Notes under the pieces: model-generated
The model's input: only the letters and a program-made list of their open reading frames with translations
Told to the model about the DNA's origin: nothing
The model's database searches: none
Assembly (NCBI GenBank): GCA_030605125.1
Contig: JAUWBD010000003.1
Coordinates: forward strand, 1-64,000
Length of the DNA: 64,000 bases
Reading direction: 5' to 3'
DNA from: Verrucomicrobiota bacterium
GTDB taxonomy: Bacteria; Verrucomicrobiota; Verrucomicrobiia; Opitutales; Opitutaceae
Made by a program: the position numbers and the translations under genes
Shown here: positions 6,276 through 31,200 of the stretch, one piece after another
How positions within the stretch are numbered: position 1 is the stretch's first letter
How the letters are laid out: the number at the start of each line of letters is the position of its first letter

Positions 6276-8297
6276 ATGCCCTCCCTGCCTCCCGGCCGCC
6301 TGTTCTACGGCGGCGACTACAATCCCGAACAGTGGCCCGAGTCCGTCTGGCTCGAGGACATGCGCTACATGAAGGAGGCCGGCGTGAACCTCGTCAGCAT
6401 CGGCATCTTCTCTTGGGCCAAACTGCAAAGCGCCCCCGGCGTCTTCCACTTCGGCTGGCTCGACCGGCTCATGGATCTGCTCGCGAAGAACGGCATCATG
6501 GCCGACCTCGCCACCGCCACCGTCTCGCCGCCCGCCTGGCTGATCAAGCTTCACCCCGAGATCCTCCCCACCCTCGCCGACGGCTCTCGCCAGTGGCACG
6601 GCTCGCGCCAGCACTACAACCCCTCCAGCTCCGCCTACCGCGCCGCCTGCGCCGAACTCGTCACCGCCCTCGCCACCCGCTACAAGGACCACCCGGCCCT
6701 CGCGATGTGGCACATCAACAACGAATACGCCTGCCACGTCCCCGCCGACTACGGCAACGAGACCGCCGCCGCCTTCCGCGAGTGGCTCAAACAACGCCAC
6801 GGCTCGCTCGAGGCCCTCAACGCCGCCTGGGGCACCGCCTTCTGGAGCCAGCACTACTACGACTGGAGCGAGATCATCCCGCCGCGCGCGATGCCCAGCT
6901 TCCAGAACCCCGGCCAGTGCCTCGACTTCGCCCGCTTCTCCAGCGACGCCCTCCTCGAGTGCTGCCTCGTCGAGCAGCGAATCCTCCGCGCCATTACACC
7001 GGACAAGCCGGTCACGACCAACTTCATGGAGTGGGTCAAGGCCCTCGACTACCGCAAGTGGGCCGAGCACCTCGACTTCACCTGCCTCGACATCTACCCC
7101 GAGCCCACCGGCAGCTCCCGCCCCCTTGCGCAAAACGCCGACATGACCCGCTCCTGGCGCCCCGACGTGCCGTGGTTCATCATGGAACAGGTCACCACCC
7201 ACGTGAACTGGCGCTCGCGCAACGCGACCAAGCGCCCCGGCCTCATGCGCCTCTGGAGCTACGCCGCCATCGCCCGCGGCGCCGACGGCATCTGCTTTTT
7301 CCAATGGCGCCAGGCCCGCGCCGGCGCCGAGAAATTCCACGGCTCCATGCTCGGCCACGGCGACCCCGCCACGCAGCGCTGCTTCCAGGAGACCAAGCAG
7401 CTCGGCAACGAGCTCGCCCACCTCGGCGAAATCGCCGGCTCGAAGATCCGCGCCGAGACCGCCATCTACTTCGACCAGCAAAACTGGTGGGCCCTCGAAC
7501 TCCCCAGCAAACCCAACGCCGACCTCAAGTATAACCGCGGCGTCGAGAACTTCTACACCCCGCTCCTCCGCGCCAACCTCGCGGTGGACTTCGCCTTCGC
7601 CGTCTCTGATCTCTCGCGCTACAAGGTCGTCTTCGCCCCCGCGCTCTACCTCGTCGCGCCCGGCGTGGCGGAGAAACTCGAAGCCTTCGTCGCCGCCGGC
7701 GGCCAACTGGTGCTCACCTACTTCAGCGGCATCGTGGACGAGCACGACCGCGTGCACCTAGGCGGCTACCCCGCGCCCTTCCGCCAGCTGCTCGGCCTCG
7801 AGGTCGAGGAGTGGGCCGTGCCGCCCGACGACCGCGCCTCGTCGCTCGCCATCACGCCCGCCGGCGCCGCGCTCGGCCTGCCGGGAAAACTCGCTTCGTC
7901 CTTCTGGGCCGAGGCGATCCGCGCCGAGGGCTGCGAAGTGCTCGCCACCTTCACCGAGGGCTACCTCGCCGGTCGCCCCGCCCTCACCCGCCGCGCCCAC
8001 GGCAAGGGCCACGCCTGGTATCTCGGCACCGAACTCGACGCCGCCGGCTACGCCGCGCTGGTGAAAACCGTGACCGACACCGCCGGCCTGCGCCCGCCCC
8101 TCGCCGCGCCCGCCGACGTCGAGGTCGTCGAGCGCCACGCCGCCGACGGCACGCGCTACGCCTTCGTCCTCAACCACCGCGACGAACCCGTCACCGTATC
8201 CGATCCTTCGCTACGCGGCCGCGAGCTGCTTTCTGCCCGCGATCTCGCCGGCGCGCTCGAGCTGCCCCCGCTCGGCGTCGCCATCGTCCGGCGCTAA
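6276..8297 (+). CDS. GH42 beta-galactosidase
   Basis: The 673-residue protein begins GRLFYGGDYNPEQW, the hallmark opening of GH42, and has full family length. The acid/base glutamate lies in HINNEYAC (E150) and the nucleophile in WFIMEQVT (E304). The TIM barrel is followed by the trimerisation domain (about residues 395-590, SRYKVVFAPALYLVAP) and a short C-terminal beta domain. No signal peptide is visible, so it should act in the cytoplasm or periplasm on beta-galactosides released from polysaccharide. The ATG at 6276 is used because upstream in-frame sequence is Pro/Arg-rich and not family-like. The next gene starts only ten bases after the stop, so the two are surely co-transcribed. GH42 enzymes may also accept alpha-L-arabinosides. 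Confidence 0.95.
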   Translation: MPSLPPGRLFYGGDYNPEQWPESVWLEDMRYMKEAGVNLVSIGIFSWAKLQSAPGVFHFGWLDRLMDLLAKNGIMADLATATVSPPAWLIKLHPEILPTLADGSRQWHGSRQHYNPSSSAYRAACAELVTALATRYKDHPALAMWHINNEYACHVPADYGNETAAAFREWLKQRHGSLEALNAAWGTAFWSQHYYDWSEIIPPRAMPSFQNPGQCLDFARFSSDALLECCLVEQRILRAITPDKPVTTNFMEWVKALDYRKWAEHLDFTCLDIYPEPTGSSRPLAQNADMTRSWRPDVPWFIMEQVTTHVNWRSRNATKRPGLMRLWSYAAIARGADGICFFQWRQARAGAEKFHGSMLGHGDPATQRCFQETKQLGNELAHLGEIAGSKIRAETAIYFDQQNWWALELPSKPNADLKYNRGVENFYTPLLRANLAVDFAFAVSDLSRYKVVFAPALYLVAPGVAEKLEAFVAAGGQLVLTYFSGIVDEHDRVHLGGYPAPFRQLLGLEVEEWAVPPDDRASSLAITPAGAALGLPGKLASSFWAEAIRAEGCEVLATFTEGYLAGRPALTRRAHGKGHAWYLGTELDAAGYAALVKTVTDTAGLRPPLAAPADVEVVERHAADGTRYAFVLNHRDEPVTVSDPSLRGRELLSARDLAGALELPPLGVAIVRR

Positions 8298-8307
8298 GCC
8301 CCTCCCC

Positions 8308-10374
8308 ATGCCCCTCCCCGCCCAACTCACCGTCCACGGCGAGTCATCTCGTTTTTGGAGCCTTCACGCTCCCGCTCTCGCCACGCCGCTCGCGGTCGCC
8401 GCCCCGATCATCCGCGTGGACGACCAGGACCTCACGCTCGCCTCCACCGCGCTGCGCGAACTGCCGGCGCACGAGCTCCCCCACGGCGTCACCGAGCGTC
8501 GCTGGATGGGCCCGGTCGCCGGTCGCCCCGAGCTTTCGGTCGAATTCGTCGTGCGCCTCGCGCCCGACAGCCCTATCGCACGCTTTCGTTACGTTCTCCA
8601 CTCGACCAAACCTGTCCGCCTGACCAACGACCCCGCAGGCCGCAACGCGCTCTCCTACCTGCGCGTCTCCGTCGCCGACCTGCCGCGCGCCACCGAGGTT
8701 CGTTTCTCCAGCTACCTCAAGACCGTCCACAGCTTCGCCCTCGAGGAGGTGCCGCTGCCCGCCGCCCATTTCGAGGCCGGCCTTTCGTTCATGGGCCCGC
8801 TCCTCGCCGCGAGCGACGGCGCCACCTCGCTTGCCCTCGCCTACGAGCACGGCTCGCAGTCCACCAATCGCTTCGTCGAGTTTCGCCTCGCCGCCGACCG
8901 CTCCGTCACGCTCGCCGCGGTCAAGGGCAACTACTTCCACGGCCGCGTCGTCGGCCCGGGCGCGCCCTACGAGACCATCTGGTTCCAGCTCGGCGCCGTC
9001 GCGGGCGACGAAGCCGCGCTCGCCGCCGCCTACCGCGACTTCGTGCTCCGCCGCCTCTCGCCCAACCCCGAGTCGCGCCGCCCGCACGTCTTCTACAACA
9101 CCTGGAACCACCAGGAGCGCCTCAAGAACTGGCACAAGCGCCCCTACCTCGCCGAGATGACGCAGGAGCGCATGCTCGCCGAGATCGACGTCGCCGGCCG
9201 CATGGGCGTGGACGTCTTCGTCATCGACACCGGTTGGTATTCAAAAACCGGTGACTGGCGCGTGGACCTCTCCCGTTTCCCCGACGGCCTCAAGGCCGTG
9301 CGCGAGGCCCTCGACGCCCGCGGCATGAAGCTCGGCCTCTGGTTCAACCCCACCATCGCCGCCCTCACCAGCGAGATGCACGCCAAGCACCGCGACTGCA
9401 TCCAGGAGTGGCGCGGCGTGCAGCACCCGCCCCACGCGCACTGGGAAGGAGAGCCCAGCCAGGGCCTCTGCCTCGTCAGCCGCTACGCCGAAGCCTACGC
9501 CCAGGAGCTCATCCGCCTCGTGCGCGAACTCGGCGTCACCTACTTCAAGTGGGACGCCATCGGCCAGGAGGGTCCGCACTCCTGCGACGCCCCCGGCCAC
9601 GACCACGGCGGCCCCGACAACTCCCCCGAGGAGCGCAACGCCTGCTACGGCTTCGAGCAGGTTCGTGCCATGGCCAAGGTCGTGGACCGCGTCTGCGCCG
9701 AGTGCCCCGAGGCGATCTTCGACTTCGACATCACCGAGCCCGGCCGCTCCGTCGGCCTCGCCTTCCTCGCCGCTGGAAAATACTTCCTCATCAACAACGG
9801 CCCCTACCACTGGGAATACGACCTGCCGGGGACGACCGACGGCAACGCCAACCTCTTCTTCTTCCCCGGCCCGGCCCGCGCCTGGATCTGCCGCGCGCCG
9901 CTCACCTACGACAAGTGGATCCCCTCGATCCTCTTCCTCACCCACTACCTGCCCGACGCGCCCGCCGACTCGCAGCTCATCAACGTCGTTTCGCTCATGC
10001 TCGGCCAGAATGGCATCTGGGGCGACCTGCTCTCGCTCGACGCCGAGAGCGTCGCGCGCTGGCGCCGCCTGCTCGATCTCTACAAGCAGGTCCGCAACTC
10101 CGTCACGCTCGCCTCACCCGTCCGCACCGGCCCGGTCGGCGGTGATCCCGAGGTGCACGAAAAAATCGCGCCCGACGGCCGCGGCCTCGTCGCGATCTTC
10201 GCCAGCACGCCCGGCACCTACGACTACCTCACCCACGCCACTCATCTCGCCCCCGCGCTCGCCGGCACGCCCGACGTGGAAGTGGTCCGCACCCTGCCCG
10301 ACGGCCGCGTCCACCTGCGCGCGACCTTCGCCGCCCCAAGCGCCCGCGTCGTCTTCTTCGGCGCCACTTCCTGA
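8308..10374 (+). CDS. Alpha-galactosidase-like glycoside hydrolase, clan GH-D (GH36-related)
   Basis: The 688-residue protein has an N-terminal beta sandwich (about residues 1-260), a TIM barrel with MGVDVFVIDTGWY and DGLKAVREALDARGMKLGLW, and the motif YFKWDAIG, in which D416 sits where GH36/GH27 enzymes carry the nucleophile. The usual GH36 acid/base segment (CSSGGGRxD) is not recognisable; the equivalent place reads FDFDITEPGRSVG, so the substrate may differ from plain alpha-galactosides. A small C-terminal beta domain ends the protein. No signal peptide is present. It lies ten bases after the GH42 gene in the same operon, in line with joint removal of galactosyl residues. The clan is well supported; exact family and specificity are not. 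Confidence 0.8.
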   Translation: MPLPAQLTVHGESSRFWSLHAPALATPLAVAAPIIRVDDQDLTLASTALRELPAHELPHGVTERRWMGPVAGRPELSVEFVVRLAPDSPIARFRYVLHSTKPVRLTNDPAGRNALSYLRVSVADLPRATEVRFSSYLKTVHSFALEEVPLPAAHFEAGLSFMGPLLAASDGATSLALAYEHGSQSTNRFVEFRLAADRSVTLAAVKGNYFHGRVVGPGAPYETIWFQLGAVAGDEAALAAAYRDFVLRRLSPNPESRRPHVFYNTWNHQERLKNWHKRPYLAEMTQERMLAEIDVAGRMGVDVFVIDTGWYSKTGDWRVDLSRFPDGLKAVREALDARGMKLGLWFNPTIAALTSEMHAKHRDCIQEWRGVQHPPHAHWEGEPSQGLCLVSRYAEAYAQELIRLVRELGVTYFKWDAIGQEGPHSCDAPGHDHGGPDNSPEERNACYGFEQVRAMAKVVDRVCAECPEAIFDFDITEPGRSVGLAFLAAGKYFLINNGPYHWEYDLPGTTDGNANLFFFPGPARAWICRAPLTYDKWIPSILFLTHYLPDAPADSQLINVVSLMLGQNGIWGDLLSLDAESVARWRRLLDLYKQVRNSVTLASPVRTGPVGGDPEVHEKIAPDGRGLVAIFASTPGTYDYLTHATHLAPALAGTPDVEVVRTLPDGRVHLRATFAAPSARVVFFGATS

Positions 10375-10380
10375 GCGCCT

Positions 10381-10404
10381 GGAGGGACGCCGTCCCCGGC
10401 GTCC
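10381..10404. repeat. Short palindromic element, copy 2 (GGACGCCG type)
   Basis: GGACGCCG, a TCCC loop and CGGCGTCC form a perfect 8-bp stem starting 11 bases after the stop at 10374. The same unit lies at 566-588. The outer two base pairs of the stem are only present here. Confidence 0.65.
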
Positions 10405-10440
10405 GCGTCGTTACGTGCAGCCGGAGCCCGGAGCATCTAA

Positions 10441-27480: not shown

Positions 27481-27516
27481 CGCCGCCCGGCCCCACGCCG
27501 GGCGGCGTTTTCGTTT
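27481..27516 (+). terminator. Intrinsic terminator
   Basis: CGCCGCCCGG and CCGGGCGGCG form a perfect 10-bp stem around CCCCACG, followed by TTTTCGTTTC. It lies 54 bp after the stop of the PEP-CTERM gene and reads in its direction. It is one of only a few classical terminators in the window. Confidence 0.88.
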
Positions 27517-27690
27517 CTCGCGCCCCACCAACGCAGCGGCCTTCGCCTTGCCCGCCGTGTCTCGCTCCGCTCCCGCCGCCGCCCAAGTCGCCTAGCCGGC
27601 CGGCGCCTCGCTCCGCCGACTGCGCATTTGGCCGGCTCTCGCGACGGCTTGCCGAAGCCCCGACGCGCGCTCAGCCTCCGCCGCCAACGC
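27508..27690. other. Spacer before the restriction-modification genes
   Basis: Apart from the T-run of the terminator, this stretch shows no gene that I can support. Base composition falls from the host level towards the lower GC of the following island. It probably contains the promoter of the restriction-modification operon, but no clear -35/-10 pair stands out. Confidence 0.4.
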
Positions 27691-27843
27691 ATGCCCGCTT
27701 CGCCCGCCCAGCCGCCGCCCGACGCCTCCCTCGCCAACGAGCCAGCTACCGTTTTCTCCTTCGCGCTCCCTATAGGCGATCACACCAACGAGCTGTTCGA
27801 AACTCGCGCTCACTTGGTAAACCCGCAGGGTTTCCGGCCATGA
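27691..27843 (+). CDS. Small ORF coupled to the methyltransferase gene
   Basis: A 50-residue frame from an ATG at 27691 ends in a TGA that overlaps the ATG of the methyltransferase gene (ATGA at 27840-27843), the same overlap that joins the methyltransferase and endonuclease genes. The predicted peptide starts MPASPAQPPPDASLANEP and ends NPQGFRP. It has no helix-turn-helix, so it is not an ordinary C (controller) protein. It could be a leader peptide for translational coupling, a small accessory protein, or chance. The palindrome 27819-27833 lies in its last codons. Confidence 0.35.
   Translation: MPASPAQPPPDASLANEPATVFSFALPIGDHTNELFETRAHLVNPQGFRP
27819..27833. promoter_or_regulatory. Palindrome just before the methyltransferase start
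   Basis: AAACCCGCAGGGTTT is a perfect inverted repeat with 6-bp arms and a GCA centre, ending six bases before the ATG at 27840. It could be an operator for self-control of the restriction-modification genes or a small hairpin that limits translation. Confidence 0.4.
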
Positions 27844-29474
27844 TTCAGGTGCTTCCTCCTCGCTCCGCCGGCGTCGTCTACACCAAGCCTTGGATGGTCG
27901 CACTCGTCCTTGATCTAGCCGGCTACACCCCGGATCGCCCCTTGGCTAGTATGGTTGCGGTTGAACCTTCCGCAGGAGACGGGGCCTTTTTGCAGGAGAT
28001 GACCCGCCGGCTAGTTTGGTCGGCCAAGCGGCACGGGACGCCATTGAGTCAAGCCCGGGACGCCATACGAGCGTTCGAAATAGCCCCCCCCGCCGCCGCC
28101 GCCGCCGTCGCAGCCACCGAGGCCACGCTTCTAGATCTGGGCGTTGATGCTCATCTGGCCGCCTCACTAGCAGCCTCTTGGATTAAAACAGGCGACTTCC
28201 TCGAGGCTTCGCTTGGGTTTCCGTTCGCCGATTTCGTGGTCGGAAACCCTCCCTACATTCGTCTTGAGGAGATACCACCGGAGAAAGCGGCTTTCTACCG
28301 CTCATTTAGCGCCATGCGTGGCCGCGCTGATCTCTACGTCGCATTTTATCAGGCGGCACTCCTTCAGCTAAAGCCGGGTGGAGTCTGCGGATTCATCTGC
28401 GCGGACCGGTGGATGCTTAATGATTACGGTAGTGCCCTCCGGAAATTCATAACCACTCAAGGCTACGCGGTCCGCATCTTGATCGAGGCTCACACCGTGG
28501 ACGCCTTCGCGACCGAAGTCTCCGCCTACCCGGCGGTGACCATCCTAGCCCATGCGCCGCAGGAAAGTGTAGTGGTTGCCAAAGCACTGCCCGGCATCGA
28601 GACCGTTCCGACCACTGAAGTTCTCAAGCATCTTTCCGGAGCCGAATCTGCTCCTTGGCTCCGGGCCGCTCGTTTCCCCGATTGGTTCAAAGGCGAGGAG
28701 CCATGGCCTTGTTCCTCCCCGGAGACGCTGAAGCTACTCAAGCATTTGGAGGCGACTTGCCTTCCCCTGGAGACGGAGGCGACCGGAACCAAGATAGGCA
28801 TAGGCGTCGCCAGTGGCGCCGACCGCATCTTCATCACCGCGCCGCACACGACTCCTGACATCGAACCCGAGCGTCTGCTACCGCTGGCCATGGCCTCCGA
28901 TCTCCGTGATGGTCGAGTTGCCTGGTCTGGCCGCCACCTCGTGAATCCGTGGAACGAGCAAGGGCTGGTAAACCCCGATGACTTTCCGCGTTTCTCGGCT
29001 CACCTGCGGCCGCATCACCTGCTGCTTCGATCCCGTCACACGGCGAAAGAACGACCGCAGCACTGGCATAAAACCATTGATCGTGTGAACCTGTCCCTCC
29101 TGCGTCGGGAAAAGCTCTACATCGCGGATATTAAGGAGCGCTTGCTGCCCGCTTTCGACGAAGGTCGCACGTATCCTCACCATAACCTCTATTGGATTAC
29201 TTCCACAACGTGGGATCTTCGCGTGCTGGGCGCCTTGCTCATGTCAGCTGTAGGCGAGTTTTTCATTCGCTGCTATGCCGTGCGCATGCGCGGTGGCAGC
29301 CTCCGCTTCCAAGCCCAATACCTTCGCCGCATTCGCGTGCCACCGCCTAGCTGGATAACACCTGAACTCGCCGTCACGCTTCGCCGCGCATTCGAGACCC
29401 AAGACCGCGCTTTGGCGAACGAGGCCGCCTTGCAGGCCTATCGACTGGATAGTCTTCCTCCGCTTCCACAATGA
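27840..29474 (+). CDS. N6-adenine DNA methyltransferase of a type II (PaeR7I/XhoI-like) system
   Basis: The 544-residue protein has the order of a gamma-class adenine methyltransferase. GVVYTKPWMVALVLD (residues about 10-25) is the entry motif, VEPSAGDGAFL is the AdoMet-binding motif I, and NPPY (136-139) is the catalytic motif IV. A target-recognition domain fills the C-terminal half (IGIGVASGADRIFI onward, with WTSSTTW-like features typical of Eco57I/PaeR7I enzymes). It would methylate the adenine of the site cut by the partner nuclease. Its last four bases overlap the nuclease start. Codon use is less GC-rich than in neighbouring genes, which suggests acquisition by transfer. The specificity CTCGAG is inferred from the partner. 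Confidence 0.9.
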   Translation: MIQVLPPRSAGVVYTKPWMVALVLDLAGYTPDRPLASMVAVEPSAGDGAFLQEMTRRLVWSAKRHGTPLSQARDAIRAFEIAPPAAAAAVAATEATLLDLGVDAHLAASLAASWIKTGDFLEASLGFPFADFVVGNPPYIRLEEIPPEKAAFYRSFSAMRGRADLYVAFYQAALLQLKPGGVCGFICADRWMLNDYGSALRKFITTQGYAVRILIEAHTVDAFATEVSAYPAVTILAHAPQESVVVAKALPGIETVPTTEVLKHLSGAESAPWLRAARFPDWFKGEEPWPCSSPETLKLLKHLEATCLPLETEATGTKIGIGVASGADRIFITAPHTTPDIEPERLLPLAMASDLRDGRVAWSGRHLVNPWNEQGLVNPDDFPRFSAHLRPHHLLLRSRHTAKERPQHWHKTIDRVNLSLLRREKLYIADIKERLLPAFDEGRTYPHHNLYWITSTTWDLRVLGALLMSAVGEFFIRCYAVRMRGGSLRFQAQYLRRIRVPPPSWITPELAVTLRRAFETQDRALANEAALQAYRLDSLPPLPQ

Positions 29475-30286
29475 ATTCGCCCTCTCCCGAGACGCAGCTC
29501 TTTCACAAAGCCGTGAAGCATTGGTGGGCTTCGAAAAAATCTGCCAAACCTCGAAAGCGCGCCCAGGGGGGCACCCGGGACGCCAACCTCCACGGGAAGA
29601 CCATGGACGGCTTTGCGCTCGTGCTTCGCGACTACCTTGTCGAACTCGGTGTGAGGCCGGAACACATCTTCGCGGGCGGGCACCTGACAAAAACGCCGTC
29701 TATTCTCCCGTCTTACTTCCGCCCCTCGAAGAACTGGGACTTGGTGGTGATCGCGAACAGTCGCTTCCACTCCGCTCCAGGCGATTCCGGTGTTCCAGTT
29801 CTCTACGCCGCCATCGAGTTCAAGTCGCAGGACAAAAGCATCGGGAACAACCAAAACAACCGCTTGGAAGAAAGCATCGGCAACGCACATGATTTCTGGA
29901 CCACCTACGCTTGCTCCGGCTTTGAGCGTCTGCAGCCCCGCCCCTGGCTCGGGTATCTTTTCGTTGGCAACTACGAGCCCTCTACCGACAGCAAGCCGGT
30001 CCAGATTTCGCAGCCGCACTTTCGTGCGCACGAGGCCTTTCGCCGCGAAGGCAGCGAACTGCAGGAGAGGTTTTCCGGTCCTTCTTACGCCGAGCGCTAT
30101 CAGCTTTTTCTCAAGCAAAGTGTCGGCGCGCGGCTTTACGACGCGGGAGCTTTTATCGTGACGGACGAATCGCTTGCGAAGAAAACGCCGAATCACCGGA
30201 TTCCGCTTCCCGAGTTCGGGCCTGAGAATTTTCTGCGCAGCCTAAAAGCCCAAATTCTGGCTCACTACCCGCTAAAACTAAGGTAA
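29471..30286 (+). CDS. Type II restriction endonuclease, PaeR7I/XhoI family
   Basis: The 271-residue product matches the small PaeR7I/XhoI family in length and landmarks: AQGGTRDANLHGKTMDGF (about residues 31-48), LPSYFRPSKNWDLVV with D90, and AAIEFKSQ with E116 and K118, which together form the PD-(D/E)xK cleavage centre. It is followed by the family-typical NNQNNRLEESIGNAHDFW and LGYLFVG. Known members cut C^TCGAG. The ATG overlaps the methyltransferase stop (ATGA), so expression is coupled and the nuclease is made only after the methyltransferase. CTCGAG is common in the surrounding host DNA (for example 3198, 4693 and 6351), so an active nuclease would demand full methylation. GC content is lower than in flanking genes. 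Confidence 0.92.
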   Translation: MNSPSPETQLFHKAVKHWWASKKSAKPRKRAQGGTRDANLHGKTMDGFALVLRDYLVELGVRPEHIFAGGHLTKTPSILPSYFRPSKNWDLVVIANSRFHSAPGDSGVPVLYAAIEFKSQDKSIGNNQNNRLEESIGNAHDFWTTYACSGFERLQPRPWLGYLFVGNYEPSTDSKPVQISQPHFRAHEAFRREGSELQERFSGPSYAERYQLFLKQSVGARLYDAGAFIVTDESLAKKTPNHRIPLPEFGPENFLRSLKAQILAHYPLKLR

Positions 30287-30454
30287 GCCCCGGCATGACA
30301 GGGAGCTTTAACGCTCTCGGAAAGATGCTCGCTTGGGGAGCGCCGAGCTAGATCGGCCTACGTCGCCCCGCTCACGCCGCAGGAAAAACTCGTTTACGAC
30401 CGTGCTCTCGTATCCACACTGCGACTACTGCACGATCACCTCGGCGCCGCCCGC

Positions 30455-31078
30455 ATGAACGGTCTCTCGCCCTTCCGCCTTCGCTTCGGCCCGCTCGAAT
30501 GGGGTTGGCTCGAGACCGAGATCGTCGTGGGCGACTTCCGCTGGTCAGGCAGCCTCTCCACGAGTTTCGGCAGCCCGGTCAACCAATGGGTCCACGCCTG
30601 CCATGTGCTCATCGACGACGCCCTCCACCTTGAGCGAAGCGGCGTGGACGCGCTCGATATGCCCTCCCGCGCCGAAGTCCGCCACCACCACGAGCCCGCC
30701 GGCCACGTCTTCACGCTCACCGAACTCCGCCCCTTCCGGCCGCTGCCCGAGGCCCGCGTGCGCATCGAGGCCGCCCTCCTAGAAGACATCCTCACGCGCG
30801 ACGGCGCCACCGCCGCGCCCATAAAAACCTGGCCGGCCGCCGACTTTGCTCTCCTCGACGTCGCCCGCGAGGTCTGTCGCGCCGCGCGCTCGGTGCTTCG
30901 CCGTCACGGCTTCGCCTGCTACCACCGCCACGCGATGGGGGGGCAGGAGTTTCCCGCCGGCGAGCTGCTGCGACTCCAAACCTGCCTCTACCCGCCCGAG
31001 GCGCTGGCTACTCTGCCCGATGAGTTTTCGCTACTCCGCGCTGACGGCTTTCCGCCGCAAGATCTGCCCGAGCCTTGA
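30455..31078 (+). CDS. Protein of unknown function
   Basis: The 207-residue product has no signal peptide or membrane segment. It starts MNGLSPFRLRFGPLEWGWLE and has several Trp and His residues (AEVRHHHEPAGHVFTL, FACYHRHAMGGQEFP). I do not recognise a family. Composition is like the host and unlike the preceding restriction-modification genes. The same frame stays open for about 150 bp upstream (to 30299, reading TPQEKLVYDRALV) without an ATG, so a longer ancestral protein may have lost its start, or a non-ATG start may be used. The 168-bp gap behind the endonuclease gene therefore may be former coding sequence. Confidence 0.55.
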   Translation: MNGLSPFRLRFGPLEWGWLETEIVVGDFRWSGSLSTSFGSPVNQWVHACHVLIDDALHLERSGVDALDMPSRAEVRHHHEPAGHVFTLTELRPFRPLPEARVRIEAALLEDILTRDGATAAPIKTWPAADFALLDVAREVCRAARSVLRRHGFACYHRHAMGGQEFPAGELLRLQTCLYPPEALATLPDEFSLLRADGFPPQDLPEP

Positions 31079-31200
31079 TCGCGGCTGGATGCAGCTCCCG
31101 CCCCTCCCCTCGCTCGTTTCGCAACGGCTTCCGCCGTCGCTGCCGTGTCACGCCGCCGTCCGCCCTTCCTCATCCCCTTCTCTTCCCCCTCCCGCTCTCC

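What the first reader, a model, noticed from the sequence alone, without database searches (positions are those of the whole stretch)
27691..30286. Lower-GC XhoI/PaeR7I-type restriction-modification island, with CTCGAG not depleted nearby
Seen: a methyltransferase and an endonuclease with the family motifs, less GC-rich than the flanks, placed among glycan genes. CTCGAG sites are common in the flanking DNA (3198, 4693, 6351 and many more, as Leu-Glu codons). Known: family members cut CTCGAG. Inferred: recent arrival, since hosts with old systems often avoid the site.
Basis: partly seen in the sequence, partly recalled or inferred. Interest (0 to 1): 0.5.

Follow-up and report, generated by a model that had tools for sequence, protein, structure and literature searches.

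The report
XhoI-type restriction-modification pair with swapped endonuclease
A bacterium, probably of the Opitutaceae, carries a seemingly recently inserted pair of genes of a well-known defence kind that marks and cuts DNA, probably at CTCGAG; the only unusual point is that its DNA-cutting gene belongs to a divergent branch that has repeatedly traded places with the ordinary one next to the same marking gene.

Summary
Window 27840-29474 encodes a gamma-class adenine methyltransferase (Eco57I/TaqI_C-like, 544 aa). It overlaps by 4 nt a 271-aa endonuclease of Pfam XhoI (29471-30286). M+R GC is 59.3% against 70.3 +/- 1.4% for the rest of the window. CTCGAG is not depleted: 4,427 sites genome-wide, Karlin ratio 0.91.

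'Recent arrival' is supported, but by better evidence than site counts. A sister genome of the same genus (G191) has an empty site, 121 bp in place of about 3.7 kb, within one contig. Site counts alone say little: carriers and non-carriers in the family do not differ significantly.

The same methyltransferase lineage, more than 60% identical across Verrucomicrobiota, pairs with either branch. The M and R trees conflict (at least 5 partner changes; p-AU 9e-67). One pair has 87% identical M and 38% identical R, with DNA homology ending at the M stop. No M residue column separates the two partner types, so both endonucleases probably share one site, most likely CTCGAG (inferred, not shown).

A new variant of a known kind.

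The parts
27840..29474 (+). M gene: N6-adenine DNA methyltransferase, gamma class (544 aa); motif X GVVYTKPW, motif I EPSAGDGAF, motif IV GNPPYI, C-terminal TaqI_C-like recognition domain
29471..30286 (+). R gene: endonuclease of the XhoI family (PF04555), divergent subfamily (271 aa); invariant D90, E116, K118 fit PD-(D/E)XK; overlaps M by 4 nt (ATGA)
27497..31198 (.). Inserted segment (about 3.6-3.7 kb) absent from sister genome G191, where 121 bp lie between the same flanks; the right edge could be near 31117, because a 28-bp palindrome at 31120-31147 is also present (3 mismatches) in the empty site
30299..31078 (+). Open frame downstream of R (first ATG 30455). About 29 residues near its beginning resemble a ~1,300-aa class I DNA methyltransferase of relatives (remnant); the rest has no relative in 200 family genomes and no Pfam match
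28200..28205 (.). CTCGAG site inside the M gene itself

Best explanation
This is a type IIP restriction-modification pair of the PaeR7I/XhoI kind, inserted between two sugar-utilisation genes after this lineage split from its sister G191. M is expected to methylate adenine N6 within the site, and R, with a PD-(D/E)XK-type active site, to cut unmodified DNA; the most likely site for both is CTCGAG. Shown: family membership, gene order, composition, empty site, conserved catalytic residues, and conflicting M and R trees. Inferred: activity, the CTCGAG specificity and the direction of insertion. The endonuclease belongs to a divergent branch that has been re-paired with the same methyltransferase lineage several times. 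That is possible because M must protect every site R cuts, so it fixes the specificity, and an isospecific R can then be exchanged by recombination at the M stop/R start (the mechanism of exchange is inferred).
For: Families. Motifs and alignment with plasmid paeR7I genes; PaeR7I methylates CTCGAG at A5 and cuts after the first base (PMC3031569). Empty site with 83-96% identical flanks inside one contig. R subfamilies: 115-135 bits against 200-297 bits to PF04555 for complete copies. M 70% but R 34% identical to the same-genus G098. G098-type R is 66% identical to plasmid PaeR7I R while its M is 44%. Trees; at least 5 partner changes and p-AU 9e-67 against one clade of M with PaeR7I-like partners. 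L041/L048: M 87%, R 38%, DNA homology from 20 bp before M to 2 bp after its stop. Of 539 M columns, 0 separate the partner types, and recognition-domain identity between types (0.74) is as high as within the divergent type (0.72).
Against: No activity or methylation data. The M lineage is only about 41% identical to M.PaeR7I. The R model (pLDDT 86) has no significant PDB match (best E 0.03, BbvCI). The empty site rests on one sister genome (80% complete, but the contig spans the site). Loss in G191 is not excluded.
Confidence: 0.77

Rival explanations
1. The divergent endonuclease has a different site, for example GTCGAC (which this genome avoids extremely) or a longer site nested in CTCGAG.
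For: GTCGAC has 80 sites genome-wide and a Karlin ratio of 0.06. R is only 30-36% identical to PaeR7I-like enzymes and carries extra segments, one between D90 and E116.
Against: Carriers of the divergent R do not avoid GTCGAC as a group: GTCGAC/CAGCTG ratios run from 0.13 to 5.0, like carriers of the PaeR7I-like R. M is indistinguishable between the two partner types, so both R are presumably covered by one methylation specificity. A nested longer site is not excluded.
Confidence: 0.12
2. The system is old in the genus and G191 lost it; the low GC reflects the family, not recent transfer.
For: M relatives of 60-73% identity occur across Verrucomicrobiota. G098 of the same genus carries a related M with the other R.
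Against: 8 of 10 sampled genomes of the genus, own included, lack PF04555. G098's R is of another branch and its M is only 70% identical. CTCGAG is not avoided.
Confidence: 0.15
3. The genes are intact but inactive or silent, a passenger.
For: No expression data; a decaying neighbour ORF; broken copies exist elsewhere (L054, G103).
Against: Both frames are intact with all family motifs; dN is low (0.17-0.25) while synonymous sites are saturated or near it between relatives.
Confidence: 0.12

Closest known systems
PaeR7I (plasmid paeR7IM/paeR7IR, DQ839391, L025); XhoI family PF04555
   Same: M-then-R order, gamma-class N6A M, same R family with the same conserved RPxKxWD...ExKS...NNRxEE core
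   Different: R 34% and M 41% identical; R about 25 aa longer with inserts; no upstream invertase-like gene as in DQ839391
G098/L038-type Verrucomicrobiota systems (PaeR7I-like R, 66% identical to plasmid PaeR7I R)
   Same: Same M lineage (70% identical), same order
   Different: R of the other branch (34-39% identical)
L034/L036/L037-type systems
   Same: M 70-73% and R 74-76% identical; same kind
   Different: Different hosts and genomic sites

Membership tests
Type IIP R-M of the PaeR7I/XhoI family | Endonuclease matches Pfam XhoI (PF04555) over its cut-off | tested here: met
   130.7 bits, cut-off 25
Type IIP R-M of the PaeR7I/XhoI family | Adjacent gamma-class N6A methyltransferase with motifs X, I, NPPY and a TaqI_C-like domain | tested here: met
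   Eco57I above cut-off, TaqI_C just below its cut-off (23 against 26.5 bits), motifs aligned
Type IIP R-M of the PaeR7I/XhoI family | Conserved D...ExK catalytic residues | tested here: met
   D90, E116, K118 invariant in 28-30 R sequences
Type IIP R-M of the PaeR7I/XhoI family | PD-(D/E)XK fold | tested here: inconclusive
   Model pLDDT 86; only insignificant PDB matches, several of them PD-(D/E)XK nucleases
Type IIP R-M of the PaeR7I/XhoI family | Cleaves C^TCGAG and methylates A5 | not testable with these tools
   Inferred from shared M with PaeR7I-like R
PaeR7I orthologue in the narrow sense | R and M both closest to PaeR7I-like partners with a shared history | tested here: not met
   R lies in a separate branch (100/100) and the M and R trees conflict

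The most novel reading that the evidence does not exclude
A divergent XhoI-family endonuclease lineage, not found outside Verrucomicrobiota in the loci sampled here, that repeatedly replaces or is replaced by PaeR7I-like endonucleases behind one methyltransferase lineage, possibly with an altered (for example nested, longer) recognition site and with recombination focused on the M stop/R start.
Probability: 0.2. Interest if true: 0.5.

Novelty: new variant of a known kind. Interest (0 to 1): 0.36.

Why it matters
M and R genes of type II systems are usually treated as one inherited unit. Here is a clear natural series in which near-identical methyltransferases (87% for L041/L048) carry endonucleases of two anciently split branches. 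That makes it possible to test directly whether the methyltransferase sets the specificity and endonucleases are exchangeable parts. It also gives a second XhoI branch for enzyme work, and it warns against dating a system by site counts alone.

Tried and rejected
GTCGAC as the real target: rejected as a group property. The M.Eco57I-type methyltransferase on contig C213 as the cause of GTCGAC avoidance: a 92% identical copy in G178 goes with an unremarkable GTCGAC count (416 against 457 for the reversed word; that copy has one stop inside). The weak Eco57I hit on C71 looks like a type I system, judged by gene order and ORF starts only. Phage carriage: no R relative in phage records or IMG/VR; M relatives in viral contigs are 39-45% identical. 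Direct repeats flanking the island in the window: none convincing. In one search the non-carriers were a hand-picked subset (one genome per genus plus genera with carriers), and G103 (a carrier with 3 control sites) and G011 were left out.

Full report
What is there. Two overlapping genes, M (27840-29474) and R (29471-30286), form a type II restriction-modification pair. M has the gamma-class motifs and matches Eco57I and, weakly, TaqI_C; R matches Pfam XhoI at 130.7 bits. The start in the finding, 27691, is an ATG in another frame. M+R are 59.3% GC against 70.3 +/- 1.4% elsewhere in the window.

Recent insertion. The sister genome G191, of the same genus, has no PF04555 gene. Its contig C87 carries the LacI gene (90% identical), the end of the PEP-CTERM gene (83%) and the start of the GH63-like gene (96%) in the same order, with 121 bp where the window has about 3.7 kb. 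The segment also holds an orphan frame. About 29 residues near its beginning resemble a ~1,300-aa DNA methyltransferase of relatives, so other debris came with or before the pair. One sister genome cannot exclude loss, but the composition and the absence from most of the genus favour gain.

CTCGAG. It is not avoided: 4,427 copies genome-wide, Markov ratio 0.78, Karlin ratio 0.91. The published threshold for avoidance is a Karlin-type ratio under 0.78, and only about half of resident orthodox type II systems show it (PMC4687349). In this family carriers are not significantly lower than non-carriers. Site counts therefore fit a recent arrival but do not show it.

Two endonuclease branches, one methyltransferase lineage. 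In the family, 24 of 200 genomes have PF04555. The window's R and a few others form a low-scoring branch, 55-78% identical to the window's R, while the rest are 30-36%. The window M, however, is 70% identical to that of G098, whose R is PaeR7I-like. Eighty M loci from genome contigs show the pattern is general in Verrucomicrobiota. On the M tree the partner type changes at least 5 times, and holding the M genes with PaeR7I-like partners together is rejected (p-AU 9e-67). L041 and L048 have 87% identical M and 38% identical R; their DNA homology (82.7%) runs from 20 bp before M to 2 bp after its stop. No alignment column of M separates the two partner types. The simplest reading is that the endonucleases are exchanged while the specificity, set by M, stays the same. 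Since the PaeR7I-like partners are 66% identical to plasmid PaeR7I, which recognises CTCGAG (PMC3031569), the window system probably does too. This is an inference.

Active site and fold. D90, E116 and K118 are invariant in the R sequences aligned, as a PD-(D/E)XK nuclease needs. The model of R is confident (pLDDT 86), but its PDB matches are not significant.

GTCGAC. The genome has only 80 GTCGAC sites (Karlin ratio 0.06), while G191 has 2,036. This is not a property of the divergent R branch, and I found no system in the genome that explains it.

Verdict. A real, probably recently inserted R-M pair of a known kind, with a divergent endonuclease and a history of partner exchange that deserves a bench test.

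Noticed in passing
whole genome G000; no GTCGAC in window 1-64000: GTCGAC (the SalI site) is almost absent: 80 copies in 4.88 Mb, Karlin ratio 0.06, against 2,036 in sister genome G191. In aligned stretches the G191 sites are changed in the window (for example GTCCAC, GTGGAC, ATCGAC). Suggests another strong or lost GTCGAC system.
   Followed up: partly
L041:4806-4918 and 7439-7549; L031:7362-7478 and 10300-10410; L047:272-332 and 2904-2966: The R-M pair lies between direct repeats of about 60-117 bp (81-92% identical), different at each locus. In L041 the downstream copy resembles the region upstream of M and its start, as if a second M once stood there.
   Followed up: partly
window 30299-31078: Orphan frame downstream of R; about 29 residues near its beginning are 61-79% identical to a ~1,300-aa class I DNA methyltransferase of relatives.
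   Followed up: partly
L178:5858-7513 (+) and 7528-8976 (-): Second type II-like pair in the genome: an M.Eco57I-type methyltransferase and a PLD-like nuclease on the opposite strand.
   Followed up: partly
L054:4971-6609 and L029:5731-7816: Broken copies of the same system: M split into two frames in L054, R split in L029 (G103).
   Followed up: no
L044:4971-7406: M of the window's lineage (70%) paired with a third, only distantly related XhoI-family R.
   Followed up: no
G118 (same genus), G045, G164: Genomes without PF04555 with low CTCGAG counts against the reversed word (319/1140, 213/2237, 727/1890).
   Followed up: no
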